A DNA stretch of 64,000 nt from Promethearchaeota archaeon (GTDB taxonomy: Archaea > Asgardarchaeota > Lokiarchaeia > Sigyniarchaeales > SOKP01): contig JAHPZA010000001.1 in the NCBI GenBank assembly GCA_019058445.1, positions 124,001 through 188,000 of the forward strand, read 5' to 3'. The notes under the pieces were generated by a model. That model had not been told where the DNA came from and searched no databases. It saw nothing but the letters and a program-made list of their open reading frames with translations. How positions within the stretch are numbered: the first letter of the stretch is position 1; each line of letters starts with the position of its first letter. Below, in pieces: positions 1,881-35,164 of the stretch. Made by a program: the position numbers and the translations under genes.

Positions 1881-3242
1881 TTACATAAATCTATTGCTTA
1901 AAACAGGAGAGCCTACTCTTTGATGCATTCTTCTTCCAGTTGTCCTAAAGATACCGGGCTTACTCTCATTATTTAATAACTTTAAAGATTCAACCATGGT
2001 AAGAAGATCATCTAGATCGTCAAGATATTCTGGATCTCTTTCAGCGCTAATTATTTGTTGTGATAAATCGTCATCATCTGACGTATTAGTCTCTAAAATT
2101 TTAATCCTCTTAGATTTTATATTATATCCCATTTGACCTCCACCCCACGGTGAGTAGTTTTGTTGATAAAGATAGGTAGTGATGTCGGGAGCAAAAGGAA
2201 AAGGATAAGTCCAACAGGAAGCATGAGCCCATAAAATCTGTCCACTTCTATGATTTGCTATATCATGTATAATTTCATCCGAATGAATTTCATTTAGATC
2301 ATAAGCTACAATCAGGCCCTCTGTATTTGTATCAACTTCATTCCAAATTTTAAAAGGTTTTTTAAAAATTTCTGAAGTGGCCAGTGCCAGTATTCGACTA
2401 GAACGGTCTGGTAAGGACAATATACAGGGTACTTCAATTTTAGCCTTGTCTATTACACTTTTTAATCTGTCAATTCCTTGACGACATAAGGAATAGGAAT
2501 CAGAAATATAAGCATAGCGTCCATTCATTTCATCATCTATTCCATAGGGAGATAGATGTAGCAGAATTGAACCATTAAGAACCATATGCCATCCACGTAA
2601 ATCTGTATTATCTAATGAGCGAGAAGTTTTCAAGGTTGATGCTCTTGTTATCATTCCTTTTAAGGAATTTACCATAAATTGAATATCCATATCTTGACTA
2701 TCTTGAATAGTAAGAAGAAGTTTCTTGGTTTCATCAATGTTGCCTGTCATTATTCTATTAAATCCTAATAAGTACCTACAAAATTCACTAGTTTCAAGTA
2801 CTTCCTTTGCTTCAGTTAATAAATTACAAGCCTCTTGGTTCATCATCATAAATTCTAAATTCACCACTAGCTCAGATAAGATTTTTTCATCTTGAGGTTT
2901 TATTTTATTTGCTCTTGATAAAAAAGTAGCTGCAATACCATGAGCACTTTCCTCATATAAGTAATATGCGAGGTCATATAATGCATCGATATCATTCGGA
3001 TTTTCACGAACATTTTTCACCAAATCCCCCCAATCATCACCAATTAGTTCTCGAGTAATCTTTTCGAATAACTCGATTACATCACCCCATACAGTTTCAA
3101 GATAAAAATAACCCGGATAATCAAGAATCTCTCTAATATTTGAGTATGCGTCTTGTAACTTTTTTTGTTTCAGATTTTTTAAAAAAGCTCCTCTGATTTG
3201 CTTATATTCTTCTGGAAATTTTACATTGGTATCTTTAGACAT
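1881..3242 (-). CDS. TPR-like repeat protein of unknown function
   Basis: 453 aa ORF, helical repeat character in N-terminal half (YDLAYYLYEESAHGIAATFLSRANKIKPQ). Confidence 0.75.
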   Translation of the reverse strand: MSKDTNVKFPEEYKQIRGAFLKNLKQKKLQDAYSNIREILDYPGYFYLETVWGDVIELFEKITRELIGDDWGDLVKNVRENPNDIDALYDLAYYLYEESAHGIAATFLSRANKIKPQDEKILSELVVNLEFMMMNQEACNLLTEAKEVLETSEFCRYLLGFNRIMTGNIDETKKLLLTIQDSQDMDIQFMVNSLKGMITRASTLKTSRSLDNTDLRGWHMVLNGSILLHLSPYGIDDEMNGRYAYISDSYSLCRQGIDRLKSVIDKAKIEVPCILSLPDRSSRILALATSEIFKKPFKIWNEVDTNTEGLIVAYDLNEIHSDEIIHDIANHRSGQILWAHASCWTYPFPFAPDITTYLYQQNYSPWGGGQMGYNIKSKRIKILETNTSDDDDLSQQIISAERDPEYLDDLDDLLTMVESLKLLNNESKPGIFRTTGRRMHQRVGSPVLSNRFM

Positions 3243-3437
3243 TTCTATCTATTTATTTTTTCAAATCATGTATAGCAATAACATTCTTCAATTTTGATAG
3301 TAAAGGTTTGTTCATTTAAAATTTTAGCAATTTTACTACTGCAATTTTGTTAAAAAAATATCCCCAATTTGCTTATATAAATGAATTATTGATAACAGAG
3401 AACGTTTAAGAAATTTTTTTAGAATAACTGTGAAAAA

Positions 3438-3552
3438 TGTAGGAGGGGGGATTTGAACCCCCGAAGGACTATTCCACTAGAGCCTCAGTCTAGCGCCGTA
3501 GACCAGGTTGCCATAGCTTACCATTAGGTTCAGCTATCTTGGCAACTCCTAC
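3438..3552 (-). tRNA. tRNA-Leu(GAG) with ~30 nt intron in the D-arm (intron approx 3508..3537)
   Basis: Acceptor GTAGGAG/CTCCTAC, anticodon arm CTAGA-CTGAGGC-TCTAG, type II variable arm, T-arm GGGGG-TTCAAAT-CCCCC; removing 30 nt gives canonical TTGCCAAG|CCTGGTC D-arm; HBh' fold GCCA/TGGC + TAGCT/AGCTA with bulges AG^A and AA^C. Confidence 0.9.
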
Positions 3553-3674
3553 CCTACTCCTACTTTAATCGAAATATTTTCTTTACTATCTTTGATATTA
3601 AAATTATAAAATTATAGAAATTTTATATTCTTTATTATCTTTTAATATTGAACTAATCATATTAATGATAGGTT

Positions 3675-4469
3675 ATGTCAAAATTAGAAACTATTATTCT
3701 AGAAATAGAGGAATCTGAAAATTATGCAATAATCTATTTGAATCGTCCCGATCAATTAAATGCTTTAAATTTTCAGTTAGCTGAGGATTTCTATTCTGTG
3801 ATGGAAACAATTGCCAGAAATGAAACCATCCGAAGTATAGTTATTACTGGGAAAGGTAATGCGTTTTGTGCTGGAGGTGATTTAGGGGCCTTTAAAAAGG
3901 CAGAAGAACCGGATACGTTTTTGTTCGATTTAGCCACGATTTTCCATAAGGGGATAAAACTGTTGAAAACATTAAACGCTCCATCAATCGCAGCGGTAAA
4001 TGGTGCGTGTTTTGGAGTTGGGTTGAGTTTAGCGTGTGCCTGTGATTTAAGAATATGTTCCGAAAAAGCTAAATTTGGGGTTGCTTTTACAAGTGTTGGT
4101 CTTTCTCCTGATTCTTCACTGACCTTTCATCTACCTAAGATAGTTGGGTTACCACTAGCAAATGAAATGGCAATCTTAAATAGAATTCTAAATGCTAATG
4201 AAGCGATTAAATTTAATTTAGTTTCAAAAGTCACCCCTGAAGATTTGTTATTAGAAGAGGTAAAAGGAATTGCTAAAAAAGTTAGTCAGGGACCAACAAT
4301 GGCCTATGGGAGTACGAAAAAATTATTCACAATGTCATTTTCTAATGATTTGGAATCTCAACTGAATCAAGAAATAATAAATATCAAAAAAAACGCGATT
4401 TCAGAAGATTTTCAAGAAGGTGTCAATTCGTTCTTTGAAAAGCGAAAGCCAGATTTCAAGGGAAGGTAA
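3675..4469 (+). CDS. enoyl-CoA hydratase/isomerase family protein
   Basis: Crotonase fold signatures NRPDQLNALNFQL, GKGNAFCAGGDL, NGACFGVGLSLA. Confidence 0.93.
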   Translation: MSKLETIILEIEESENYAIIYLNRPDQLNALNFQLAEDFYSVMETIARNETIRSIVITGKGNAFCAGGDLGAFKKAEEPDTFLFDLATIFHKGIKLLKTLNAPSIAAVNGACFGVGLSLACACDLRICSEKAKFGVAFTSVGLSPDSSLTFHLPKIVGLPLANEMAILNRILNANEAIKFNLVSKVTPEDLLLEEVKGIAKKVSQGPTMAYGSTKKLFTMSFSNDLESQLNQEIINIKKNAISEDFQEGVNSFFEKRKPDFKGR

Positions 4470-4693
4470 TAAATAAGGAAAAATTGCTAATTTTTACTAA
4501 ATCTAGGTTCATAAAGACTAATTTAGGTAATAATTTACAAAGAATTCTGATAAATTCATTAAGGGTCAATTTTTTTCAAAACATAAAGGTTAAATTCCTA
4601 TATTTTTTATTTTAAAGAGGACAAATGAATTAAATAGATTAATAAATTCTAATATTATAAATCATAAAAATCACAAAATATCGGTATTGATTC

Positions 4694-5710
4694 GTGAGTG
4701 TTGATAGAAAAAGATTAGACGCTTTATTAAAATGGTATAAACAAGAAGTCGGTAAGGATCTCATTGCAGCGATTATAGTAAATCGAGAAGGTTTGGTTAT
4801 GGAAGCGATCTCGGGGAGTTCGGATAATAAAGCAATTGATGAAGAGATTGTAGGTGGTGTGAGCGCTTTAGTAGAGCCTGTACTCAATAGAATCACTAAA
4901 GAGTTTAGTTCTGGTGCTTTTGGAACTGGAACATTTGACACCGAAGAGTATAGATTAATTTTTTGTGAAGCTGGACCAGAATCTATATTCGTAACTGTTC
5001 TAGATAGCATGGGGATGGTTGATCCCGTTTTTCCATATGCTTACTTAGCAGCAGAAAAAATTGCTCGAATCTTTGATGGGCGCACAGTCAGTCCCGTTAT
5101 ACCTAAAATTATTACAGGTAGAGCAGCAAGTCAAATTGAGCGAAAAATTGATAAAATTCAAAAACTTAAAATAAAATCTGGAGAATATGCTTTTAAATTG
5201 GTCCTAGGCGGTGATGGATCTGTTGGTAAGACGAGCATGGTACACCGTTTTGTAGAAGATATATTCCATGTGGATTATAAATCAACGATCGGAACGTCTA
5301 TAATGAAAAAAGAATGTAAATTTGAGGGATTAGAATCAAAAGTTCGGTTTGTCATATGGGATTTAGCAGGACAGTCTCAATTTAAACGAGTGAGACAAAC
5401 CTATGTTGCCAATGCGGAAGCAGGAATTTTAGTGTTTGATGTGACAAGAAGAGAGACTTATGATAATGTGAAGCTCTGGTATGATGAAACAGTTAAAGAA
5501 GCACAAGGTATTACCTTAATTTTAGTCGGTAATAAAATTGACTTAACCGATTCAAGACAAGTTTCAAAAGAAGAGGGGGAAGCATTAGCTAATCAGTTAG
5601 GATTAAGCTATATCGAGACCTCTGCTAAGACTGGTGAAAATATAGAAGACGCTTTTAAAATGCTCGCTTTAAATATAATAAAAATTTATGTTGAAGCAAT
5701 TGAAGTATAA
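4694..5710 (+). CDS. Roadblock/LC7-like domain fused to Ras-superfamily small GTPase
   Basis: GTG start; N-terminal ~130 aa roadblock-like; C-terminal GGDGSVGKTSM (G1), WDLAGQ (G3), VGNKIDL (G4), ETSAKTG (G5). Confidence 0.88.
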   Translation: MSVDRKRLDALLKWYKQEVGKDLIAAIIVNREGLVMEAISGSSDNKAIDEEIVGGVSALVEPVLNRITKEFSSGAFGTGTFDTEEYRLIFCEAGPESIFVTVLDSMGMVDPVFPYAYLAAEKIARIFDGRTVSPVIPKIITGRAASQIERKIDKIQKLKIKSGEYAFKLVLGGDGSVGKTSMVHRFVEDIFHVDYKSTIGTSIMKKECKFEGLESKVRFVIWDLAGQSQFKRVRQTYVANAEAGILVFDVTRRETYDNVKLWYDETVKEAQGITLILVGNKIDLTDSRQVSKEEGEALANQLGLSYIETSAKTGENIEDAFKMLALNIIKIYVEAIEV

Positions 5711-19057: not shown

Positions 19058-21208
19058 ATGGAAACAAAAGATAATGGAAGGTTAAAAATGGTTTTTGTAG
19101 AACAAACGAGTGCACATAAAAAGAAAAGTAAATATCTAAAAAATTTATTACCTAGAGTGTTTAGAACGGAAGGGGATGTGGTTAAGTTTGATCCGTTAAA
19201 AATTGAAAATAGTATCATTAAAGAAACTGGTTTGGATAAAGAAAATGCTGATAGATTAACTGAAATCGTTGTGAGAAGGATCATATCATCAGGAATTCAA
19301 TTTCTCTCAGGACCCCATATTCGAGAAATAGTTTGCTCTGTTCTTTCAGAAGAACACTATGAGGACCAGAGAAAGTTATATACTCGAATTGGAATGCCTT
19401 TAATGGATTATGAAGCTATTTTAGACCAAGGCATAAATGAAAATGCTAATCAAGATATGAATCCTGAGAGTATCCATCACTGGGCTGCAAATCGAATCTC
19501 CGAAGAATATGCGCTTTTAAGGCTTTTAGATTCAGAAGAAGCTAAAGCTCATTTGTATGGTGATATCCATATCCATATGCTAAGATATTTCGATCTTCGT
19601 CCTTTCTGCCAGGAATGGGACCCTCGCATGATTCTCGAGCATGGTTTACCCCCTGTTGAAAGTTGGCCGCATTGTAGTAAATCGGCTCCTGCTGGAAGCT
19701 TGAGAGTGGCTGTAACTCATTTAGCAAAATGGTTAGGCATAATACAAGGGGAATTTTCAGGAGGACAAGGTTATGATTATATTACAACGTTTTTAGCTCC
19801 TTATGCGAGAGGAATTTCTGACAGGGAAATAGAACAATCAATGCAATGCTTAATTTTTGAAACTAACCAAATTTTTGCTGCAAGGGGTGGGCAAGTACCA
19901 TTTACTTCAATATCCTGTACTCCAACAGTACCAGAAGGGTTACTTGATATTTCAGCAATAGGACCTCATGGAAAAATAGTTGGATCTTATGGAGATTATA
20001 AAGATGAATGCCTACAGCTATTTGATGCATTAACGGATGTGTACATTAAAGGAGATCAAAATGGAAAACTTTTTGCTTTTCCAAAACATGAAATAAAAAT
20101 TAAAAAAGAATGGATAAATGATTTCGAACCGTCTTATTTGAAATTGATGGAAGAAGTGGCAACTATGGGTACTCCTTATTTCCTTAATATGTGTCCTGAC
20201 TGGATGCCTGATGAAATACATAGTCAATGTTGTAGAAAATTTCTCAGTGGAAATGAAATCATTAGTAAATGTATCCTTGATCCCGAAAAAAGAAAAGATG
20301 CAAATGTTTGGGAAAATTACGTGACTATTGGCTCTCTTCAAAGTGTAAGCTTAAATCTACCTAGATATGCCTATTTATCTCGAAATGAAGATGATTATTT
20401 GGAAATATTAGATGAAAAAATGGAATTATCTGCTAGAATTTTGATAAAAAAATGGAAGTTAATGGAAAAAAGATTACAATCAGGTCACCTCCCACTGTGC
20501 TGCGGAAAAATAAACGGAAAACCAATTTTTAATATAAACGATCAAAACCTCTCTATAGGTTTTACAGGATTAAATGAAGCCGTTAAAAGTTTAACTGGAG
20601 AAGAACTCCACGAAAGTAAAGATGCGTATAATTTGGGCAAAAAAATATTGGAATTCATGGTCGCAAAATGCAATACAATGACAGAAAGAGATGGATATTC
20701 ATATTCACTCTGGGAACAGCCCGCCGAGAGCAGTTCAGGACGCTTTGCTAAATTGGATTTGAAACATTTTCCTAAAAAAGCAATTCCTCAATCATCTGGT
20801 AAATCTGCTTATTACACAAATTCGGGTCATTTCAGATATGATGCTGATATTCCACTATCAGAAAGAATAAAAAAGCAAGGAGATTATCATCCAATCGTGA
20901 GTGGGGGTGTTATTACTCATATTTTTCTAGGAGAACAAAAACCAGACATAAATGGATTGTGGGAGCTTACAAAAAATATTTGTCTTAACACAAATACGGC
21001 ATATTTTGCATATTCTCCCGATTTTACATACTGTCCGCATTGTCGAAAGATGTTTCGAGGGGGAAGCTTTACCTGTTCTCAGTGTGGATCTCAGGACGCA
21101 AAAGTTTATTCGCGTATTACCGGATATTATAGTGAAGTTAATAGATATAATGCTGGAAAGAGAGCAGAATGGGAAACCCGAAAACGACAAAATATAGTTC
21201 ATATATAA
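19058..21208 (+). CDS. nrdD: anaerobic (class III) ribonucleoside-triphosphate reductase; start may be ATG 19088
   Basis: ATP-cone N-terminus, GGQVPFTSI, C-terminal CPHCRKMFRGGSFTCSQCG Zn site and SRITGYYSEVNRYNAGK glycyl-radical region. Confidence 0.95.
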   Translation: METKDNGRLKMVFVEQTSAHKKKSKYLKNLLPRVFRTEGDVVKFDPLKIENSIIKETGLDKENADRLTEIVVRRIISSGIQFLSGPHIREIVCSVLSEEHYEDQRKLYTRIGMPLMDYEAILDQGINENANQDMNPESIHHWAANRISEEYALLRLLDSEEAKAHLYGDIHIHMLRYFDLRPFCQEWDPRMILEHGLPPVESWPHCSKSAPAGSLRVAVTHLAKWLGIIQGEFSGGQGYDYITTFLAPYARGISDREIEQSMQCLIFETNQIFAARGGQVPFTSISCTPTVPEGLLDISAIGPHGKIVGSYGDYKDECLQLFDALTDVYIKGDQNGKLFAFPKHEIKIKKEWINDFEPSYLKLMEEVATMGTPYFLNMCPDWMPDEIHSQCCRKFLSGNEIISKCILDPEKRKDANVWENYVTIGSLQSVSLNLPRYAYLSRNEDDYLEILDEKMELSARILIKKWKLMEKRLQSGHLPLCCGKINGKPIFNINDQNLSIGFTGLNEAVKSLTGEELHESKDAYNLGKKILEFMVAKCNTMTERDGYSYSLWEQPAESSSGRFAKLDLKHFPKKAIPQSSGKSAYYTNSGHFRYDADIPLSERIKKQGDYHPIVSGGVITHIFLGEQKPDINGLWELTKNICLNTNTAYFAYSPDFTYCPHCRKMFRGGSFTCSQCGSQDAKVYSRITGYYSEVNRYNAGKRAEWETRKRQNIVHI

Positions 21209-21457: not shown

Positions 21458-24400
21458 ATGAAACAAACAGAAAGATCATATTTTTCTTATTCAACAAAAT
21501 TAAAAATTGCTGCATATTGTAATAATACTTGCGCTTTTCCTTCATGTGGTAAAAAAGTTCTTAGTGGGAGGATTAAGGCAGAAGATCTCGAAAATGGATT
21601 TTCTAAAGGTGAATTTGCTCATATAGTTGGTGTATCTCCTCAAGGACCTAGGCGATCTCAAGATGTGTCTCTAGAGAGCATTAATGATGTTTCAAATGGG
21701 ATACTACTATGTGCAGAACACCATGCATTAATAGATGCAAATCCTAATGATTATCCTATAGAAACCTTAAGAAAATGGAAAAGGAATATTGAAGATAATT
21801 ATAAAAATCTTCTGTTTATCAGTGATTATGATTCATGGGATGTTGACATAAATAATTTAATTAAAACTTCTGAATTTATTCAATATTCCGAAGAATTAAA
21901 TAAATTTTTAAATAGTTCTGAGAATCTAATTGTGCACGTAGACGGCGAAATAGGAGTCGGGAAAAAAACTTTTGTAAAATATTGCTTTTCTCAATTACCT
22001 AAAAATCTGCAGAACGAAGTTATTATAATACAATCTAATGATTTTGATCTCTCAAATTTCTCATTGTTTAATAAAATGATTAAATCAAGATTCCTTATTT
22101 TGCTTGAGACTTCTCCAAATTATCTTAAAAAATTAGTTGATAGAATTAAACAAGTTAATCCAACTAGTTATAAAGTCATTTCGATTGGTTCGGGTGAATT
22201 AGTAACTAAAAAAATAAATGGAATTATAAAAAAATATACTTTAAACCGTTTAGATTCGAAAAGTTCAAGGAAATTAATCAGCCAATTAAGCAAAATTATT
22301 TCTCAGAATAATATAAAATATATTTTGGATTTGACAAAAGGAAATCCAGGAATTATTGCATCATTGGTCAAATATAATGAAAGAAAATATGATTTCACAG
22401 ATGATTCCATAATTTCTGAAATTTTCGAGAATTTCAATGAAAGAATTAAAAAAATGGGGATAGAGTTAATTCTAGTTAAAAAAATTATATTAGGTTTCTC
22501 AATCTTCTCTGAATTAGGATGGTATAAAGGATTATATAAGACATTATTTGAGAAAGGAAAATGGAGTTATGAATTTGAAGAGATACCTAACAAATTTTCC
22601 AAGATAATAAATGTTGATCTAGACAAGATTGACATTATTATTACAGAATTACTTGAACTAAAAGTTTTAGAAAGAAAAGGGAGATTTTTAACTTTATCTT
22701 TACCATGTTTATCAGGTCTTTTCATTCGTCAGACACAGGAGGTATTTCTCAAGTATTTTAAGCGAATTATGGATTTACAAGATCCACATTTATTACAAAA
22801 ATTTTTAAAACGATTAAAACAGTTTGCTTATGAAGAAGTCCTAATTTCATCAATTGTTAAGGAAATTCTCGATACTGGGTTATTATCAACTATAGACTGC
22901 CTAAATATTAATTTTTTTTCTACAATCCTCTTAAATCTTGCACAGCTTAATAATAAACTAGTGGCTGACCATCTTGAATTATTATTCAAGCATAAAAATC
23001 CACTAGAATTAAAAGAAATTTTAATCAATCGAAGAAACTTAATAACAGCTCTTGAGCATCTGATATGGTATCCAGAAACATTTAAGACGGGAATGGATAT
23101 TTTAATTAAACTAAGCATAGGTGAAAATGAAGACTGGGCTAATAATGCAACAGGATTAATACCTGAAAAATTTAGAGTATATTTACCTGGAACGTCAGCA
23201 AGTTTAGATTTGAGATTGAATTATTTATCTGAGTTTATTGCTAATTCAACTGAAGAGCATTTTTTTTTGATTCCAATGATTTTCAAATCTATTTTCTATC
23301 TAAATACTAGTTCTAGATTGATATACGCTGAGATACAATCATTTAAGCCAATACCAAAAGAATTCGTACCAAATCCAAAAGAATTGTCAAAGTATTTAAA
23401 TGAAACTTTTAAAATTTTTAAAAATCAATTTGAAAATGAAAAATTTGAAAAAGATGGATTAGAAATCATAAATAATAATTTGAAACTTTTTGTAGAACTA
23501 AACAAGTTTGAAGAAATTAAATCAATATGGAATAAAATAATAAGTAAAGATAGAGATTTTAAAATCAGATTAATAAATTTTTTCGAATATCGATTCAAGA
23601 ATGATACAATCTATCCAGATATTAAAGAGTATATAAACAAATTAAAAGAAGATTTTTCCCTACTTGATTCAATTAAAGAGTTTTCTTGGAAAAGCCCATT
23701 AGATTTTAAAGAAGAAGATATGAAATCCAAATCTCTTGAAGTAAAAAAAGTATTATCTAGTTTAGAAAAGGAAGAAATTCAAGAGATTCTAGAATGGTTA
23801 ATGAAAAATTCTGGTGATTTTGTCATACAAATTGGAATTTTGTTATCATTGGACAAAGATTGGATTGATCAATATGAAGATGTATTAGAAAGCTTTCTAA
23901 AATTAAAGGAAAATAGGGAATTTGATTTCTTTCTTGCGGTCTCTTATAACATTAGAATTAAGGACCAAGAAAGGTGGAGATCTATATTAAAAAAAATTGA
24001 AGCAAATGAAGGACTTTCACATGATTACTTTAGATTGTTAAGAGCAACTCCAATTCTCGATGATTGGGTTGTAAATAAAATAGTTGATTTAGCTGAACAT
24101 GATTTCCTAAATGAAAGTGATTTATATCAATTTTCATGTTTAGAAAATGTAATTGAATTGGATGAAAACTTGTTTAAAAAAATAATGAGAATCTATTATA
24201 ATAGATTTCCTAATGTAATTTCTGTTAAGCCTCAACAATGGAATGATAATTTATTCTTAATAAAACGATATATTGAAAAAAATCCCAATTTTATCAAAAG
24301 AAATGTTGAAGATCTATTAAAAATTCTTTTAAATTTTGAGTGTCATGAAGTTGAGATTGGTGATAAATTTTCAAGCCTTTGGTTAGAAATTATTCTTATA

Positions 24401-25009
24401 ATTATTAAAGAATGTCCGGGAACAATTAAGGAAATAAGAAAAAAAATAATTAGTTTAATTCCTAGCAAATATTTACCAATGGATTTTGACAAAACAACTA
24501 TTAACACTCTATTTATCAATTTTTATGAAATAGAAGCAGAAGATACCTGGGAAGATTTTAAAATTTTATTTAAATCCAAATCAATTGATTATGTAGAGTT
24601 TTATTTCAACCTCTTATTTCTAAAATTAGTGCCTATCAATAAAATTTTAGAATTATGTGAGGAAAATGTAGAAAAAAATCCTTTAATTCTTGTTAAAATT
24701 GTAGGAGAGGATATCCAATCTCAAAAAGGTCAAGATCTTGTTCGTGAAATTTGGTATAACTACTCGAATATTAGCAATCTTTCTTTTGAAATATATTCTA
24801 ATTATACTTCTGGTGTCAAAATATTCTCACCTGGTGAAAGCGCTAAAATTCAAGAATTTCAATTAAAAAGACTTGAGGAGTGGCTTGAAAAAGAAAAAAA
24901 AATGGAAAAAACTAGAGAAAAAATGACGATATTAATAAATGAATTGAAAAGATTAATCTCGAGGGATGAAATACACGCAAAACAGAATGATGAAGAAACA
25001 AAAATTTAG
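21458..25009 (+). CDS. HNH endonuclease domain fused to STAND-like P-loop NTPase with long helical C-terminus (candidate defence effector)
   Basis: HNH: CNNTCAFPSCG...GEFAHIVGV...NGILLCAEHHALID; Walker A VDGEIGVGKKTF; STAND-like YTLNRLDSKSSRKLISQLS...LDLTKGNPGIIASLV. Confidence 0.82.
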   Translation: MKQTERSYFSYSTKLKIAAYCNNTCAFPSCGKKVLSGRIKAEDLENGFSKGEFAHIVGVSPQGPRRSQDVSLESINDVSNGILLCAEHHALIDANPNDYPIETLRKWKRNIEDNYKNLLFISDYDSWDVDINNLIKTSEFIQYSEELNKFLNSSENLIVHVDGEIGVGKKTFVKYCFSQLPKNLQNEVIIIQSNDFDLSNFSLFNKMIKSRFLILLETSPNYLKKLVDRIKQVNPTSYKVISIGSGELVTKKINGIIKKYTLNRLDSKSSRKLISQLSKIISQNNIKYILDLTKGNPGIIASLVKYNERKYDFTDDSIISEIFENFNERIKKMGIELILVKKIILGFSIFSELGWYKGLYKTLFEKGKWSYEFEEIPNKFSKIINVDLDKIDIIITELLELKVLERKGRFLTLSLPCLSGLFIRQTQEVFLKYFKRIMDLQDPHLLQKFLKRLKQFAYEEVLISSIVKEILDTGLLSTIDCLNINFFSTILLNLAQLNNKLVADHLELLFKHKNPLELKEILINRRNLITALEHLIWYPETFKTGMDILIKLSIGENEDWANNATGLIPEKFRVYLPGTSASLDLRLNYLSEFIANSTEEHFFLIPMIFKSIFYLNTSSRLIYAEIQSFKPIPKEFVPNPKELSKYLNETFKIFKNQFENEKFEKDGLEIINNNLKLFVELNKFEEIKSIWNKIISKDRDFKIRLINFFEYRFKNDTIYPDIKEYINKLKEDFSLLDSIKEFSWKSPLDFKEEDMKSKSLEVKKVLSSLEKEEIQEILEWLMKNSGDFVIQIGILLSLDKDWIDQYEDVLESFLKLKENREFDFFLAVSYNIRIKDQERWRSILKKIEANEGLSHDYFRLLRATPILDDWVVNKIVDLAEHDFLNESDLYQFSCLENVIELDENLFKKIMRIYYNRFPNVISVKPQQWNDNLFLIKRYIEKNPNFIKRNVEDLLKILLNFECHEVEIGDKFSSLWLEIILIIIKECPGTIKEIRKKIISLIPSKYLPMDFDKTTINTLFINFYEIEAEDTWEDFKILFKSKSIDYVEFYFNLLFLKLVPINKILELCEENVEKNPLILVKIVGEDIQSQKGQDLVREIWYNYSNISNLSFEIYSNYTSGVKIFSPGESAKIQEFQLKRLEEWLEKEKKMEKTREKMTILINELKRLISRDEIHAKQNDEETKI

Positions 25010-26261
25010 CGAATTGATTCCAAAATTCGATAATTGTTATATTCCTTTTAGATCAAACCTTGAAATTAAGATAGATCAAATTCATTTTAGAAAAAAAGGA
25101 CAAGATGAATGGTCATATTTTTCTAAATTATTCAGTTATGAAGATGATTATAATCATATAGTTGAAATTAATAACGAAATTGATGAAAATCTAATAATTA
25201 TCTACTATAAATCACTTGATCCTATAAAGTTTTCGTCAGAATTTGTCCAACTTCGAGTTATTATAAATAATGAGATTTATAGATGTATGTGCTCAATAGA
25301 ATGGATAAAAATTGAAGATGATTTACTTCCAAAGATCGTAATTAATTCAAATTTAGGATTTAAAAAGGAAAGAATTACCTGCCTATGTCTAAAATTAAAC
25401 GACAATTGTTTGAAATTCCTTAAACAATTTAACCAATTAATTGAAACTCAAAATATTACAGATTTGACTGATATTCGTGGAATTAATATTAAAAATTATG
25501 ATATCGCAATTGTAAATATCAAATTCTTAGATGATATAAATTTATACTTGAGATTTCTAAAGAATATTGGACAAATATACATCTCTGATGACATTGGAAA
25601 ATTATCAGAAAATTGTCTCAATATCAACAAACACAATTCATCTTATTCCTTTCATTATCGTATATCTGAATTTTTAAAAATAAAATGTTTAAACATTGAG
25701 AAAAATGATAAAGTCGATTTTTGGGAACAAAATAAAGATGAATCCGAGAGATTTTGGCAAAAATACTTACAAAAGCATACTGATATCTTTTCCTCTGCTC
25801 TAAACTATACTATGGAATTTATCTGTGATGAAGGATCTGTAAGAGGGCAAGATATATATGGAAAGGGAGAAAAAAGAATAGATTTTCTATATAAAGGAAA
25901 TGATAATAATGCTATTCTAATCGAAATAAAAGGACCAAAAACTCAATTAATTATGAATATGGAATATCGTGAAGGAATATATCCTCCCACAACTGATTTA
26001 TCAGCTTCAGTCCTTCAGGTAATGGATTATAAGAAAATACTAATCGAAAATTATAATGAAATTAAAAAAAGATGTGATTGTGATGGTTTAAAGACAGACA
26101 TCATTAAATGTTATGTTATAATTGGAAACTTAGAAGATTTAAAAGAGGAACAAGAAAAAAGTTTTTCTTATTTTAAAGAAGTCGTAAACCCATATGTGGA
26201 GATAATCACCTTTGATGATCTTTTTGATAAATATAAAAAAAGCTATTTAATGGTCATTTAA
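24966..26261 (+). CDS. Shedu-like (DUF4263) PD-(D/E)XK nuclease
   Basis: FWQKYLQKHTDIF...KRIDFLYKGNDNNAILIEIKGPKTQLI...DLSASVLQVMDYKKIL; overlaps the upstream gene by 44 nt. Confidence 0.8.
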   Translation: MKYTQNRMMKKQKFSELIPKFDNCYIPFRSNLEIKIDQIHFRKKGQDEWSYFSKLFSYEDDYNHIVEINNEIDENLIIIYYKSLDPIKFSSEFVQLRVIINNEIYRCMCSIEWIKIEDDLLPKIVINSNLGFKKERITCLCLKLNDNCLKFLKQFNQLIETQNITDLTDIRGINIKNYDIAIVNIKFLDDINLYLRFLKNIGQIYISDDIGKLSENCLNINKHNSSYSFHYRISEFLKIKCLNIEKNDKVDFWEQNKDESERFWQKYLQKHTDIFSSALNYTMEFICDEGSVRGQDIYGKGEKRIDFLYKGNDNNAILIEIKGPKTQLIMNMEYREGIYPPTTDLSASVLQVMDYKKILIENYNEIKKRCDCDGLKTDIIKCYVIIGNLEDLKEEQEKSFSYFKEVVNPYVEIITFDDLFDKYKKSYLMVI

Positions 26262-26323: not shown

Positions 26324-28222
26324 TTATTTATTGTCTTTTATGAAAGTTTGAAGATCTATAAAGAAATTGAAATTATCGCTTGTAATATTAGTTTTAAGTG
26401 TTTCTACTTCTTTATAAGTAACTGTCTCTGCTTCAGTATTATTTCTTTTCTTACAAACAAATTTCCCATCTTCCTGTTCTACAAGAATTGGTTCCCTTGT
26501 TTGCTTAATAGCAACAATCAAAATGATTTTTTCTATATCGAAATCATCTATCAATTTTATCTCTTTACATTTAATAAAATCCTTTTTTGGTTCTGTAAAT
26601 TTCCTTAATACTTTCTTAATTTGTTTAATTTTTTCCTCTAATCCATCAATTCCGACAATCTTTTTTGGATCATCATCTGTAATACCAATAATTAATAAGC
26701 CACCATCATAATTGGCAAAACTTGTTACTTGATTGCAGAATTTAATTTTAGCCCTCTTTTTTTCTGATTTGCTGGATTTTTCCCAAAAGTCAAGTGTTTG
26801 CTTAAAGTCCCATAAATCATTTTCAATGCGGTTAGGTTCTATAGCTTTTTTTATAAAAAGAATTAAAGCTTCTTCATTATATAAAAAGGTTTGTTGCAGT
26901 CTATATTTGTTAATATCTAAATCTAATTCTTCATAAATTTCTTCAAAATCTTCTTCAAGAATTTTGTTCACAATGGATTTAGTGTTTTCTTTTTGAATTA
27001 AATATACAGAGCATTCCTCTTCATTTTCGTATAAAAATTCTCTAGAATGCGTAGTTATAAAAATCTGATTAGATTTTGATTCTTGAAGGAATTTATCCCT
27101 TAACTTAATTTCTAATCCAGGATGTAAATGAAGCCCAGGTTCTTCTATACATAGTATATTATCTTGCCCAATTTCCATGATATAAGCAATAAAGTGTGCT
27201 ATGTTAAGTATACCAGCACCCATATTGTCCAAATTCAATTCTATGTTTAAATCATTTTCTTTTAAAATTAATATAGTATAATCATTTTCGATCACTTCTT
27301 GCCTTAGTATATCAATTTCAGGAATAAATTCTAATAATTGCTTATTAAGTTTTGAGTTCCAATCATGTTCATTGGTAACCAATTTCTTATATATTATAGT
27401 AACTAAATTACTTCCTACCGGATCCAGACTTAAGCGAGTGGCCCCTGAGGTCTCAGCCCTTGGATTAAATCTACGTTTATCTGGAATAATATGGATATTT
27501 TCAAAAAATTTAATTAATTCTTTAGCTATAAATGGAATAGGGGGATAATTTTCAAGATTCAAATGTTCTTCTAAAATTTGTTTTATATATCGAATTCCAC
27601 CAGTTCTTATATTTGCAAAATAATTTTTTAGAAATACTCTATCAATTGAAACATTTTGTTTTTGAATAGCTTTAGGATTATATACTGAGTTTTGAAAATT
27701 ATCATTATCAAGTCTTTTAAAATGGAACAAATCTTGATAGTTATTATCCATATGTAAAATTTGAATTCTTTCAATATATAAAGCCTTTCCAATATCGTAC
27801 TTTTTCAAAAAAATTTTAATTTTATTGAAATATTCATTTGATTTAAGCCAGTCTAAAGCGACTTTTGTGTCATTCCAATTAAATTCTTGAAATTTTGGAT
27901 CATTTTTCCTTGTATAATCAAAAACTCTATTTAAAAAATTTCGAGTGATAAGTTCCAATATAATTTTATTTCTAAACTCTGATGTTAGGGAAAAAATTAG
28001 ATTAAGTTCTAATGGTAGTGTTTCGTCTCCATCATAATATTGTTCTCTATTTACTTTTCTTTCTGAATAAGAATCTTGGAGTATCTTAAATATTTTAAAT
28101 AAATTTGATTTACCTGAACTATTTTTTCCTATTATAACATTGTAATCTTTAAAATCCTCAAATTTAGCATCTTTATAACTCAAGAAATTTTTGATTTCTA
28201 TTCCTGAAAGCTTAATATTCAA
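26324..28222 (-). CDS. AAA15/OLD-like ATPase fused to C-terminal Schlafen/AlbA_2-like domain
   Basis: Walker A IIGKNSSGKSNLFK, Walker B NILCIEEPGLHLHPG, H-loop IFITTHSREFL; C-terminal VTSFANYDGGLLIIGITDDDPKKIVGIDGLEEKIKQI is AlbA_2-like. Confidence 0.82.
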   Translation of the reverse strand: MNIKLSGIEIKNFLSYKDAKFEDFKDYNVIIGKNSSGKSNLFKIFKILQDSYSERKVNREQYYDGDETLPLELNLIFSLTSEFRNKIILELITRNFLNRVFDYTRKNDPKFQEFNWNDTKVALDWLKSNEYFNKIKIFLKKYDIGKALYIERIQILHMDNNYQDLFHFKRLDNDNFQNSVYNPKAIQKQNVSIDRVFLKNYFANIRTGGIRYIKQILEEHLNLENYPPIPFIAKELIKFFENIHIIPDKRRFNPRAETSGATRLSLDPVGSNLVTIIYKKLVTNEHDWNSKLNKQLLEFIPEIDILRQEVIENDYTILILKENDLNIELNLDNMGAGILNIAHFIAYIMEIGQDNILCIEEPGLHLHPGLEIKLRDKFLQESKSNQIFITTHSREFLYENEEECSVYLIQKENTKSIVNKILEEDFEEIYEELDLDINKYRLQQTFLYNEEALILFIKKAIEPNRIENDLWDFKQTLDFWEKSSKSEKKRAKIKFCNQVTSFANYDGGLLIIGITDDDPKKIVGIDGLEEKIKQIKKVLRKFTEPKKDFIKCKEIKLIDDFDIEKIILIVAIKQTREPILVEQEDGKFVCKKRNNTEAETVTYKEVETLKTNITSDNFNFFIDLQTFIKDNK

Positions 28223-28648: not shown

Positions 28649-30190
28649 ATGATAAAAATGAACGAGGCAAGCGTTATTGTACCAAAAAGTGAAATTAGTG
28701 ACGATTTCTTAATTAAGAATTACTGTAAGCTCATTAAAAAAGGGGAGATTGAATTTCTAGAGAAAATGGATAGTTTTGACATATATGATAAGAATTATGA
28801 AGAATTAAAGGATGAGTCTAACTATATAAAAATTGATACTAAGAATCTTGTTAATATTTTAAATGATCTCACTATAGAAGATAAAAAAGAAGAAGAAAAA
28901 GTAAAGATTCTGAAAAAGAAAAAAATAATATTTCAGAAACTATGGCCGAATTTTGTAAGGAGTGCTATTAAATATCTAAGAATAAAAGATACTCGAGATA
29001 AAGGTACCTTTAAATTTGATTTTGGAGTCAACAATTTAACAAAATATTTTGAAGAATTCTCAAAATTTGAAGAAATTCTTTATGGAATTGACGAATACTA
29101 TCGAGATCATTCCCTACATGTTTTTAGAGTGTATCTTTTAGGAGTATATTTAGTAAGAAAATTTTTTAAAGATTATGATCAATTGAAGATTAAAAATAAA
29201 CCTTCTATAATCGGTAAAATCTTTTCTGATGAAAAAGAAGCGATTTGGTGCGTTATAGCATTATGTCATGATTTAGGATATCCATTACAGAAATTAGATG
29301 AATTAAATAAAAAACTTGTTAAAATACTCGAATTTTTTGGTACTTCAAATTTTAATCCTTTAAGATTTAGCTTACCTCTTGAAGGAACAATCTTAGACAA
29401 ATTTATTTTAAAATTAATTTCGTCAAGAATCAATGACAACTTATTGATTCAACATCAACCTAAATTTTATGCAAAATACTCTAAGGCTTATGAAAAATTG
29501 AGCCATGGAATAATGTCTTGTATCTTATTAATGAAAAATTTAGTATATTTTAAAGAAACAGATTATGAACCTGATTTCCAAAAAGGTTTTAAATATATTA
29601 AAGAGCCTTCTACAAATAGCAACGATTTTGATGAAAGAACTTTAGAGGATGCAAGACAATATGTAATTAGAAGAGAAATACTACGATCAATTGCTTCCCA
29701 TGATAACGAAGATATTTATCATATAGAAATGAATAATTTTCCCTTTTTATTGATAATGTGTGATGAAATCCAGGAATGGAGCCGACCTGCTTCAAAAATA
29801 AGACTACTATATGCCTTAGATGAAAAAAATAGAGAGATAATTAATATCAATGCTTTTAATGAAAATATAATAGATATCTTAATAAATTTAAATTTTGATG
29901 AAAATGATTTATTAAATTATGTTGCAAAGAAATATATGAAATTTATTCGATTATTGAGAAGTGCTGTAGATTCAGATAAACGGAAATTTAATTTTATAAT
30001 GTCGATACAAAATAGGGAAGGCATAAAATACCAGTTTATTTATGAAAGTCCTAATGAATTCTATACTGATGAAGAAAAGAAAAAAATGGAAATCTCGTAT
30101 GAAGAACCAAAATGTATAAAATTTATAAATGAAAAACCAATAGAAGATTTCTCATTAAGGAATATTATTGATTTAATAAATAAAAAATGA
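28649..30190 (+). CDS. HD-domain phosphohydrolase-like protein
   Basis: YYRDHSLHVFRVYLLG...ALCHDLGYP...HGIMSCILL...ASHDNEDIYH...CDEIQEW. Confidence 0.72.
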   Translation: MIKMNEASVIVPKSEISDDFLIKNYCKLIKKGEIEFLEKMDSFDIYDKNYEELKDESNYIKIDTKNLVNILNDLTIEDKKEEEKVKILKKKKIIFQKLWPNFVRSAIKYLRIKDTRDKGTFKFDFGVNNLTKYFEEFSKFEEILYGIDEYYRDHSLHVFRVYLLGVYLVRKFFKDYDQLKIKNKPSIIGKIFSDEKEAIWCVIALCHDLGYPLQKLDELNKKLVKILEFFGTSNFNPLRFSLPLEGTILDKFILKLISSRINDNLLIQHQPKFYAKYSKAYEKLSHGIMSCILLMKNLVYFKETDYEPDFQKGFKYIKEPSTNSNDFDERTLEDARQYVIRREILRSIASHDNEDIYHIEMNNFPFLLIMCDEIQEWSRPASKIRLLYALDEKNREIININAFNENIIDILINLNFDENDLLNYVAKKYMKFIRLLRSAVDSDKRKFNFIMSIQNREGIKYQFIYESPNEFYTDEEKKKMEISYEEPKCIKFINEKPIEDFSLRNIIDLINKK

Positions 30191-32484: not shown

Positions 32485-32940
32485 AATTTAAAGTGTTTAA
32501 TTCCTCAATCTTCTGATAATTAGGCTTACTATACAAATTCAAGTTATTTCAGATATGATGCTGAGATTTTACATTCAGAAAGGATTAAAAAACAAGGAGA
32601 TTACCATTCTATTATAAGTGGTTGAGTAATTATTCATAAAAGCTTAGGCGAGCAAAAATCAGACATACAAGGATTATGAGAATTAACTAAAAATATTTGC
32701 CATAATAATAACACAGCATATTATGCCTACACTACAGATTTCACTTATCACCCTTATTGAAGAAGAATCTTTCGAGGGGACAGTTTTACCTTTTAAGAAT
32801 GTGGTGCTCAAGATGCCAGAATTTACTCCAGAATTACTGGCTATTATAATGAAGTAAATAAATATAATGAGGGAAATAGAGCAGGATGGGAAGCCTGTAA
32901 AAGAGATTATATCAACGTATTACAGAGATTAAAAAAATAA
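32485..32940 (+). pseudogene. degenerate 3' fragment of a second nrdD
   Basis: In-frame over 152 codons with 5 stops (TAG, TGA x3, TAA): IPQSSDN*AYYTNSSYFRYDAEILHSERIKKQGDYHSIISG*...TAYYAYTTDFTYHPY*RRIFRGDSFTF*ECGAQDARIYSRITGYYNEVNKYNEGNRAGWEACKR, colinear with the NrdD C-terminus at 20750..21208. Confidence 0.93.
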
Positions 32941-32959: not shown

Positions 32960-35164
32960 CTAATTTTTAATATAGATTTGTCCTATTCCTGATGTAAAGA
33001 TTTCATAGAATGGAACTGTTAAATCATAAATATTATTATTTTCATTATTAAATTCTATAGATTTTACTTTAGTGAAAGTATTTTTAGCAAATTTCATCCA
33101 TAACTTCTCAACAACAGGAGTATTATATTTCTTTTTTATAAGAAAACTCAATGTATCTAATAATTTTCCTTCAGATATATTCATTGTACTATTCTTTTGA
33201 GCACATCTCGCTGCGATATATGGAATTTTTCCTTTTTCAGATAACATTCTAAGAGATATAGCATAATTCTCTTTTAATTCTACATTCATTTTTTTCATCC
33301 ATGGATTTAAATCGATGACTGGTTCTATATCCCTCCCAAAATGTCCAATTTCTGGAATAGATGGAATAAACTTCCTTAATATAGATAGATTTCTTTTTCC
33401 TTTTATTTCTAAATGATAAGCATTATACCAACTAGGATGTTCTACATTATCAAATTCTCGTTTCCTAATATAAGATGAAATCCCTAAGCGTTTTAATAAA
33501 AAACTCAAACCAAAAACTAATTTGCGTGAAGATGTGTAAAAACTCACTAAAACATCTCTTCGTGGTGAGCCTTCACGTGTATATACTACTTCAGATCCGT
33601 CTCCTTCTAAATAAGCAGCGATAAAACCTTTCACACATTCAATGGGAGCATTATATAGAAATGAAGGAATTTCCTTAAACGGTGCTTTTTCAAGTTTTAA
33701 TCCTAATCCCGTTGAAAACATAGATTTAATTAGAATGGAATTACTATTGACGCTATATACAGTGTTATAATCCGCTTTATCATGTGTAGCAATATAAGGT
33801 GTATATCCAAAATTCCTTTCTATAAGAAATGCTACTTTTTCCATCTCAGTTTTATTATTTCCACAAGTGAACGTAATATGTTTCATAGAACCTTCGGAGC
33901 AGTAATGCCCTAAGATATATCCAACCTCGAAATTTTTCTCAACAAATCTAAAGGCTTTTGTTAATGCATTTTTAACATACTCAATGCCTTTCTCCACAAT
34001 AATTTCTCCACAATTACTAAAGTCTAAGGGGGAATCGTCTTCATTAACATCGATGACTCGAGGCATTAGAATTGGAGTTCCTTCTTTAACGTTTTCTGCT
34101 GTAATTTGGATTATATTAAGATTTTCATCAACAGAAAGTAGCTTATGTTGTTTTGATAACGATAATATCCCATGCTTCAATGTTAAATTTAATGAAAAAT
34201 CTCTATACTTTTTTTTAATTCCTTCAATGGGGATTTTTTTTAATTCAAAATTCTCGTCCAATCCAAAGATATAAGAGTTTTTATAATTTTCTATTTCTTT
34301 AATTTCTATTAGATTATATGAATTTGTATTTAAATCGAACAATAGAACGAGCTCGTTTTGCTGCATTTTAGAAAAAAGATTCTCTTCAATGGGGGTTCGT
34401 TCCTTCTCATACACATCATTAATTCGCTGAAGTTTATCTTCTTGGATAATTTCTTCATCAAAGAATACTTGATTATTTATTTCTTTTTCTTTAATATTCA
34501 CACTCGTTTCTAATCCAAAAAATTGGATTAAATCTTTTCGAATTACTTTTTCGAGGTTAAATAATCCCTCCTCAGTATCAATTTGACTCATTATTTTAAA
34601 TATTATTTCTATTATCCAACACAAGTAGACAAAAAAAGCCTTGCGGTATTTCTTGTTTTTTTTAATTTTCCTTTGGTATATTTTTAGTTCTGAGAGGAAT
34701 CCACTGTAGTTAGCATTTTCGAGATATTTCAAAATATTTAATATTGGTTTTTTAGTTATAATTGGAGTCAAATGAGCTTCAATTCTTTTAATTAGTTCAA
34801 TGGTTAGTTCCATTTGTGAAATCGGCGTGTTTACTTCTCTCTCAAATTTTTTTAATTTAACATAACTCATTCGAGCAATAAATAGAAGATAAGTATCCTT
34901 AAATCGTTGTGAAAATTCTGGATCGTAAATAATAAGCTCTAAGGCACTATTCAACTTATCATTATTATTTTTTTTATAAATTAATTGAACTTTATCAATA
35001 GTTTCAATCGAATAATTCTTAAAGTCAATTTTTTTGCCACATTCTGAGCAGAATATGAATTTTAAATCAATATTAGCAATATTTAAAATTGTATTCACTG
35101 TAATTAACATGCCACATTCTGGACAGTAAATATGTGTTTGTTTAAGTTTGTCTTTGCTTTTCAT
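32960..35164 (-). CDS. Zn-ribbon protein fused to Hint/LAGLIDADG intein-like module (no C-extein)
   Basis: N-terminal CPECG..CSECGKK; Hint-like LKHGILSLSKQHKLLSV; LAGLIDADG VGYILGHYCSEGS and CVKGFIAAYLEGDGSE; intein block F/G-like NIYDLTVPFYEIFTSGIGQIYIKN then stop. Confidence 0.82.
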   Translation of the reverse strand: MKSKDKLKQTHIYCPECGMLITVNTILNIANIDLKFIFCSECGKKIDFKNYSIETIDKVQLIYKKNNNDKLNSALELIIYDPEFSQRFKDTYLLFIARMSYVKLKKFEREVNTPISQMELTIELIKRIEAHLTPIITKKPILNILKYLENANYSGFLSELKIYQRKIKKNKKYRKAFFVYLCWIIEIIFKIMSQIDTEEGLFNLEKVIRKDLIQFFGLETSVNIKEKEINNQVFFDEEIIQEDKLQRINDVYEKERTPIEENLFSKMQQNELVLLFDLNTNSYNLIEIKEIENYKNSYIFGLDENFELKKIPIEGIKKKYRDFSLNLTLKHGILSLSKQHKLLSVDENLNIIQITAENVKEGTPILMPRVIDVNEDDSPLDFSNCGEIIVEKGIEYVKNALTKAFRFVEKNFEVGYILGHYCSEGSMKHITFTCGNNKTEMEKVAFLIERNFGYTPYIATHDKADYNTVYSVNSNSILIKSMFSTGLGLKLEKAPFKEIPSFLYNAPIECVKGFIAAYLEGDGSEVVYTREGSPRRDVLVSFYTSSRKLVFGLSFLLKRLGISSYIRKREFDNVEHPSWYNAYHLEIKGKRNLSILRKFIPSIPEIGHFGRDIEPVIDLNPWMKKMNVELKENYAISLRMLSEKGKIPYIAARCAQKNSTMNISEGKLLDTLSFLIKKKYNTPVVEKLWMKFAKNTFTKVKSIEFNNENNNIYDLTVPFYEIFTSGIGQIYIKN

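What the first reader, a model, noticed from the sequence alone, without database searches (positions are those of the whole stretch)
26324..28222. AAA15/OLD-type ATPase fused to a Schlafen/AlbA_2-like domain
The N-terminal ~430 aa carry a split SMC-like ATPase (GKNSSGKSN, CIEEPGLHLHPG, TTHSREF). The C-terminus, instead of the TOPRIM nuclease of OLD/GajA, has a Schlafen/AlbA_2-like motif (NYDGGLLIIGITDDDPKKIVGIDGLEEKI). This could be a Gabija/OLD-like sensor ATPase with a swapped RNA/tRNA-targeting effector.
Basis: partly seen in the sequence, partly recalled or inferred. Interest (0 to 1): 0.72.

Follow-up and report, generated by a model that had tools for sequence, protein, structure and literature searches.

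The report
OLD-type ATPase with Schlafen-type effector
A Lokiarchaeal (Asgard archaeon) gene in a small cluster of antiviral defence genes joins the sensor ATPase of a known defence-nuclease family to a Schlafen-type nuclease-like domain in place of the usual nuclease, so it looks like a defence protein that kept its trigger and swapped its weapon.

Summary
Window 26324-28222(-) encodes a 632-aa protein with AAA_15 (E 4.4e-24) and C-terminal SLFN_AlbA_2 (E 3.2e-13), both above Pfam cut-offs. The fusion is conserved: four more loci match over the full length (36-42% identity), one of them split by a stop at the domain boundary. All appear Lokiarchaeal; a contig filed under Chlamydiota has Lokiarchaeal composition and is probably mis-binned. 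The nearest homologue of another architecture, L047, has the same ATPase (37%) but a TOPRIM nuclease after the same junction, so this is an OLD-family ATPase with its effector exchanged. Known defence genes lie beside the gene at all four loci with enough flank (Shedu; a defence-type reverse transcriptase plus Pycsar; TIR; TIR-like). In the window the island follows nrdD and is bounded by a degraded 414-bp copy of the nrdD 3' end. The first two Schlafen catalytic positions are present (E467, D472); the third is T515, with D516 beside it. AlphaFold places the ATPase with GajA and Eco8 but fails on the C-terminus, so the Schlafen fold rests on sequence profiles. I found no description of this fusion. 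Best reading: an ATPase-gated, single-gene, probably RNA-cleaving defence protein. Substrate and antiviral activity are untested.

The parts
26324..28222 (-). The fusion gene: 632-aa OLD-type ATPase + AlbA_2 protein, TTG start
   Evidence: full-length homologues
27035..28213 (-). AAA_15 (OLD/GajA-type ABC) ATPase domain, residues 4-396
   Evidence: Pfam E 4.4e-24; Foldseek best PDB matches GajA and Retron-Eco8
28103..28129 (-). Walker A, GKNSSGKSN, residues 32-40
   Evidence: invariant except one position in homologues
27137..27157 (-). Walker B with catalytic glutamate, ILCIEEP, residues 356-362
27044..27055 (-). H-loop TTHS, residues 390-393
26432..26821 (-). SLFN_AlbA_2 domain, residues 468-597
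   Evidence: Pfam E 3.2e-13; profile matches SLFN11/12/13/14
26801..26824 (-). Putative catalytic E467-x4-D472 and K474, matching SLFN13 E205/E210
   Evidence: E467 57/57, D/E472 58/58 and K474 57/58 in Asgard AlbA_2 domains; SLFN13 mutants in PMC5862951
26675..26704 (-). AlbA_2 GG-loop/strand GGLLIIGITD, residues 507-516, with the shifted third acidic position (T515, D516)
24966..26261 (+). Shedu SduA nuclease (DUF4263), convergent neighbour 62 bp away
   Evidence: Pfam SduA_C 1.6e-23; PADLOC SduA 1.1e-39
21458..25009 (+). HNH nuclease + putative P-loop NTPase protein, 1183 aa, overlaps the Shedu gene by 44 bp
   Evidence: HNH_2 1.5e-6; PADLOC PDC-M68A and CBASS endonuclease effectors
20782..21195 (+). 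3' end of nrdD, left copy of a 414-bp direct repeat that bounds the island
   Evidence: blastn 74%, E 7.8e-72
32499..32912 (+). Degraded second copy of the nrdD 3' end (frame broken by stops), right-hand boundary

Best explanation
It is a single-gene antiviral protein built from an OLD-family (AAA15) ATPase whose C-terminal TOPRIM nuclease has been replaced by a Schlafen-type AlbA_2 domain. Shown from sequence: the two domains, their joint conservation, a close relative that keeps TOPRIM at the same junction, purifying selection on both halves, and defence genes next door. Inferred: the ATPase assembles into an oligomer and holds the AlbA_2 domains inactive while the cell is healthy, as in GajA (where ATP keeps TOPRIM closed) and PARIS (where AriA holds AriB). 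A viral trigger changes the nucleotide or binding state and frees the AlbA_2 domains. These then cut RNA, most likely tRNA or rRNA, using E467 and D472 (with K474 nearby and possibly D516) around a metal. Translation stops and viral spread is aborted. The trigger and the RNA cut are unknown.
For: Domains. Conserved fusion at five loci. Effector exchange: L047 shares the ATPase up to about residue 440, then has TOPRIM-like sequence (VEGQDD...DLD; DUF3226 6e-4, OLD-like_TOPRIM 0.041, below its cut-off) and groups with the fusions (97/98 in a 21-row tree, 72/89 in a 13-row tree). Selection: dN/dS 0.22 (ATPase) and 0.17 (AlbA_2) between L044 and L045. Catalytic-position conservation over 58 Asgard AlbA_2 domains. 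Defence neighbours: Shedu + HNH at the window; reverse transcriptase, PycC, PycTM and TIR at L044, PDC-S35 TIR at L046, TIR-like at L048. Island boundary and low GC (0.24-0.27 against 0.32). Precedents from papers: SLFN13 acceptor-stem tRNase (PMC5862951), SAMD9/9L AlbA_2 linked to an NTPase with a Schlafen-like active site (PMC11221667, PMC5445408), PARIS AriB tRNase (PMC12409363), GajA gating by ATP (PMC12796447).
Against: The third Schlafen carboxylate position is T515 here and S/T in all close relatives, so catalysis could be altered or absent. The C-terminal fold was not confirmed by AlphaFold. No activity, phage or virus data exist. The only characterised archaeal OLD protein, Cran1, acts in the cell cycle and not in defence (PMC12796447). 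Enrichment of defence neighbours was not tested against a background rate; the only internal contrast is that ten other large ORFs of the window scanned are not defence genes.
Confidence: 0.55

Rival explanations
1. The AlbA_2 domain binds nucleic acid but does not cut it. The protein is an ATP-driven sensor or clamp that blocks viral DNA or RNA, or silences genes.
For: The third catalytic acidic position is T/S in all nine close relatives and variable in Asgard AlbA_2 domains generally. AlbA_2 has been described as nucleic-acid binding in SAMD9 and pAgo proteins.
Against: E467, D/E472 and K474 are almost invariant over 58 diverse domains. The first two matching residues are the ones whose loss fully inactivates SLFN13 (PMC5862951). 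The domain sits where a nuclease sits in the closest ATPase relative.
Confidence: 0.25
2. The protein is a host-physiology regulator (cell cycle, stress or translation control) rather than an antiviral factor, as found for the archaeal OLD protein Cran1.
For: Cran1 precedent (PMC12796447). AlbA_2 is a widespread output domain in Asgard archaea, also on receptor-like, Ras-like and HEAT proteins with no evident defence link.
Against: Patchy presence, 3 of 228 phylum genomes; two divergent copies in one genome; defence genes beside all four assessable loci; island-like composition and boundary.
Confidence: 0.15
3. The AlbA_2 domain targets DNA, so the protein remains an OLD-like DNA nuclease with a different catalytic fold.
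For: GajA, Eco8 and Cran1 cut DNA, and the Shedu and HNH neighbours are nuclease-like defence proteins.
Against: Characterised Schlafen-type AlbA_2 enzymes cut tRNA or rRNA. No relative with DNA-cutting AlbA_2 activity was found in the papers read.
Confidence: 0.15
4. Chance gene fusion or assembly artefact with no joint function.
For: L045 carries a stop exactly between the domains.
Against: Five loci with full-length colinearity, and both halves under purifying selection. The L045 stop is a single-base TCA to TAA change followed by an ATG, with no other damage downstream.
Confidence: 0.02

Closest known systems
OLD family nucleases (Class 1 OLD; L047 in Lokiarchaeota is the nearest sequence relative)
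   Same: Same AAA15/ABC ATPase (37% identity with L047); single-gene layout; ATPase-effector order; same junction
   Different: AlbA_2 in place of TOPRIM; no VEG/DxD TOPRIM motif
Gabija GajA / Retron-Eco8 effector
   Same: ATPase fold: best Foldseek PDB matches (E 7.7e-12 for GajA, 6.6e-11 for Eco8)
   Different: No GajB helicase or retron in the neighbourhood; no TOPRIM
PARIS (AriA ATPase + AriB TOPRIM tRNase)
   Same: AriA-like ATPase profile match, E 1.6e-24; predicted ATPase control of an RNase
   Different: Effector is AlbA_2 and fused, not a separate TOPRIM protein
SAMD9/SAMD9L
   Same: AlbA_2 with a Schlafen-like active site in one chain with a P-loop NTPase; antiviral; AlbA_2 is the effector (PMC11221667, PMC5445408)
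   Different: SAMD9 has AlbA_2 at the N side and a STAND NTPase plus Sir2-like, TPR and OB domains; the present ATPase is OLD/ABC type
Bacterial Schlafens linked to BREX and other defence (AlbA_2 + minimal histidine kinase + wHTH; PMC12839542, citing preprint 10.1101/2025.07.24.666596, which I could not read)
   Same: AlbA_2 nuclease-like domain in a defence context
   Different: AlbA_2 is C-terminal here, preceded by an OLD ATPase, with no wHTH

Membership tests
OLD family nuclease | N-terminal AAA15/ABC ATPase with Walker A, Walker B and H-loop | tested here: met
   Pfam AAA_15 4.4e-24; motifs conserved; GajA-like fold
OLD family nuclease | C-terminal TOPRIM nuclease | tested here: not met
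   No TOPRIM match; no VEG motif in any fusion, present in L047
Gabija | GajA next to a GajB helicase | tested here: not met
   Neighbours are Shedu and an HD-like protein, no helicase
PARIS | AriA ATPase with a TOPRIM AriB partner | tested here: not met
   AriA-like ATPase only; no AriB match in the neighbouring genes scanned
SLFN AlbA_2 domain (PF04326) | Profile match above the curated cut-off | tested here: met
   50.7 bits against 25.3; independent profile match to SLFN structures
SLFN AlbA_2 domain (PF04326) | Matching three-dimensional fold | tested here: inconclusive
   Low-confidence models; SLFN13 only rank 2 at E 0.65
Schlafen RNase | E-E-D catalytic triad (SLFN13 E205, E210, D248) | tested here: inconclusive
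   E467 and D472 match the first two; third position is T515 with D516 next
Schlafen RNase | Two-lobed (pseudo-dimeric) SLFN core | tested here: not met
   Only one AlbA_2 stretch in the protein
Schlafen RNase | tRNA/rRNA endonuclease activity | not testable with these tools
   Needs biochemistry
[quoted passage not shown]
   AlbA_2 is at the C-terminus after an ATPase
SAMD9 family | AlbA_2, Sir2-like, STAND NTPase, TPR and OB domains in order | tested here: not met
   Only AAA15 and AlbA_2 present

The most novel reading that the evidence does not exclude
A previously undescribed class of single-gene immune protein in Asgard archaea, in which an OLD ATPase sensor controls a Schlafen-type RNase. 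It would be one member of a wider Asgard set in which AlbA_2 is a plug-in effector mounted on many sensors (OLD ATPase, AAA_16 NTPase, Ras-like GTPase, HEAT repeats, transmembrane receptors). That would place a Schlafen-style translation-shutdown immunity in the lineage nearest to eukaryotes.
Probability: 0.4. Interest if true: 0.8.

Novelty: new variant of a known kind. Interest (0 to 1): 0.6.

Why it matters
OLD/GajA/AriA ATPases are the sensor half of several widespread defence systems, and their output is normally a TOPRIM nuclease. A natural exchange of TOPRIM for a Schlafen-type domain on almost the same ATPase (L047 against this family) gives a matched pair for asking what the ATPase senses and how it controls an effector, independent of which effector it is. 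It also shows AlbA_2 as an immune-type effector in Asgard archaea, where two surveys of defence systems do not mention Schlafen (PMC11291487, PMC12988326; zero occurrences), and it parallels the NTPase-controlled AlbA_2 of human SAMD9/9L.

Tried and rejected
Single-sequence scan of genome contigs found nothing; the alignment scan succeeded. Viral contigs: no relative of either the full protein or the C-terminus. Plasmids: only the ATPase half of unrelated AAA proteins; phages: none. Horizontal transfer to Chlamydiota was considered from L048 and rejected as the less likely reading: the contig's tetranucleotide profile correlates 0.98-0.995 with Lokiarchaeal DNA against 0.90-0.94 with other contigs of its own bin, a neighbouring gene is 51% identical to a Lokiarchaeal gene, and no other of 234 Chlamydiota genomes has the gene. 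Fusions in 346 Bacteroidota, 300 Bacillota and 201 Chloroflexota genomes: none seen, but these scans score few candidates per genome or use only the C-terminus, so divergent fusions are not excluded. Structure prediction of the C-terminus failed twice; the first fold search matched only the ATPase and the second gave nothing significant. The trees do not settle whether the AlbA_2 fusions form one clade that excludes L047 (51/73). An empty insertion site in a sister species could not be tested: the contig of the 90%-identical nrdD ends 0.6 kb past the gene.

Full report
What is there. Window 26324-28222, minus strand, is an open reading frame of 632 aa with a TTG start that lines up with the start of homologues. 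Pfam gives AAA_15 at residues 4-396 (E 4.4e-24) and SLFN_AlbA_2 at 468-597 (E 3.2e-13), both above curated cut-offs. Walker A (32-40), Walker B (356-362) and the H-loop (390-393) are intact and conserved. PADLOC profiles hit only the ATPase half (HEC-01A, AriA, OLD, GajA), and the closest PDB sequences are GajA chains.

Is the fusion real? Four further loci encode the same two-domain protein over the full length at 36-42% identity: L044 and L046 (two divergent copies in Lokiarchaeota isolate 9R3_44), L045 (Lokiarchaeota bin106) and L048. L048 is filed under Anoxychlamydiales. Its contig has the tetranucleotide profile of Lokiarchaeal DNA (r 0.98-0.995, against 0.90-0.94 with contigs of its own bin), a neighbouring gene is 51% identical to a Lokiarchaeal gene, and no other of 234 Chlamydiota genomes has the gene. 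I read it as a mis-binned Lokiarchaeal contig. The window's own genome is in the same family as the Lokiarchaeal genomes that carry homologues. In L045 one base change (TCA to TAA) puts a stop exactly between the domains, directly followed by ATG, and the AlbA_2 frame is otherwise open. Between L044 and L045 dN/dS is 0.22 for the ATPase and 0.17 for AlbA_2, so both halves are under purifying selection.

Effector exchange. The next nearest homologue, L047 (Lokiarchaeota YT1_007, 803 aa), is 37% identical through the ATPase up to about residue 440. It then continues with VEGQDD...LLDLDRG, the pattern of a TOPRIM domain, with weak Pfam matches to DUF3226 (6e-4) and OLD-like_TOPRIM (0.041, below cut-off). 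A maximum-likelihood tree of the ATPase puts L047 and the five fusions together (97/98 with 21 rows, 72/89 with 13 rows); whether the fusions are one clade without L047 is unresolved (51/73). Other ATPases in the 21-row tree carry TOPRIM, a short unassigned C-terminal stretch, or nothing after the ATPase. The simplest history is an OLD protein that exchanged TOPRIM for AlbA_2; the direction is inferred.

The AlbA_2 domain. A profile of nine C-terminal homologues finds SLFN11, SLFN14, SLFN8/13 and SLFN12 structures (E 3.5e-6 to 2.8e-5) and nothing else credible. E467 and D472 fall on SLFN13 E205 and E210, whose mutation abolishes activity (PMC5862951). Over 58 Asgard AlbA_2 domains E467 is present in 57 of 57, D or E at 472 in 58 of 58, K474 in 57 and R593 in 55. 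The position of SLFN13 D248 is variable (T515 here), while position 516 is D or E in 48 of 58. The active site is therefore likely but not certain. AlphaFold gave a usable ATPase (best matches GajA, then Retron-Eco8) but not a usable C-terminus (pLDDT about 50-60; no significant match, SLFN13 at rank 2 with E 0.65). This must be counted as untested structurally, not as support.

Surroundings. The gene stands alone on its strand. It converges on a Shedu SduA gene (24966-26261), which overlaps an HNH plus putative NTPase gene (21458-25009). At L044 the neighbours include a defence-type reverse transcriptase, the Pycsar cyclase PycC, the Pycsar effector PycTM and a TIR protein; at L046 a PDC-S35 TIR protein; at L048 a TIR-like protein. 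No partner is shared, so the fusion is probably a one-gene system. In the window the block begins at the end of nrdD. A 414-bp copy of the nrdD 3' end (74% identical, broken by stops) lies at 32499-32912, and the block between has 24-27% GC against 32% for the outer flanks of the window. A same-genus genome is colinear with the window (86% DNA identity) only up to 21193. This looks like an old insertion that carried a new 3' end for nrdD. Ten other large ORFs of the window scanned are not defence genes.

Distribution. The full fusion is in 3 of 228 genomes of the phylum, and the C-terminal subfamily in 11 of 228. AlbA_2 as such is in 67 of 224 Asgard genomes. It is often C-terminal, on N-termini that include HEAT repeats (L115, L122), an AAA_16 NTPase (L124), a Ras-like GTPase (L126), a four-helix membrane segment (L026) and extracellular-looking repeats with membrane helices (L123, L125, L131; my reading of the sequence, no Pfam match). 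This supports AlbA_2 as an exchangeable output domain. It also warns that not every such protein need be antiviral.

How it probably works. In GajA, ATP binding keeps TOPRIM closed, and loss of ATP opens it (described in PMC12796447). In PARIS, the related ATPase AriA releases the tRNase AriB (PMC12839542 and PMC12409363). In SAMD9L, an AlbA_2 domain with a Schlafen-like site in one chain with an NTPase shuts down translation (PMC11221667). By analogy the present protein would hold AlbA_2 silent until infection, then cut tRNA or rRNA. Gating, trigger, substrate and antiviral effect are all inferred.

What is known. I found no paper or curated family describing an OLD/AAA15 ATPase fused to AlbA_2. 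Bacterial Schlafens in defence are known in another architecture (PMC12839542; the underlying preprint 10.1101/2025.07.24.666596 was not readable here). Under the OLD definition (ATPase plus TOPRIM) this is not a member, because TOPRIM is absent. It is a variant on the same ATPase, and it would work like one.

Noticed in passing
L115, L122, L123, L124, L125, L126, L131, L026: In Asgard genomes AlbA_2 recurs as a C-terminal module on HEAT-repeat, AAA_16, Ras-like GTPase, multi-pass membrane and receptor-like (repeat plus membrane helix) proteins. The Ras-like GTPase fusion (L126:3-1724) is especially unusual.
   Followed up: partly
window 20782-21195 and 32499-32912: Direct repeat of the nrdD 3' end flanks the low-GC block with the defence genes; the right copy is degraded. 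Looks like an integration scar.
   Followed up: partly
window 21458-26261: HNH + putative NTPase gene overlapping a Shedu SduA gene; a PADLOC SduA model matches both genes, its N-terminal part to the HNH gene and its C-terminal part to SduA, as if a fused Shedu had been split into two genes.
   Followed up: no
L048 (JAAKFN010000059.1): Contig deposited in an Anoxychlamydiales MAG has Lokiarchaeal composition and gene content; likely mis-binned.
   Followed up: yes
L045:2410-2425: Single-base stop (TAA) exactly between the ATPase and AlbA_2, followed at once by ATG: either a fresh break or a natural two-gene version.
   Followed up: partly
L131:880-2487 and 2997-4814: An OLD/GajA-type gene lies about 0.5 kb from a receptor-like AlbA_2 gene in another Asgard family.
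   Followed up: no
window 28649-30190: 513-aa protein with a weak HD-domain match (E 0.17) upstream of the fusion gene on the other strand; an HD protein also precedes the fusion in L044 (4754-5539).
   Followed up: no
window 32960-35164: 734-aa intein-bearing (LAGLIDADG) protein at the right edge of the island.
   Followed up: no
G018:C11:12238-12339: 34-residue remnant 68% identical to the ATPase start of the window protein, about 5 kb from the L044 fusion: a decayed extra copy.
   Followed up: no
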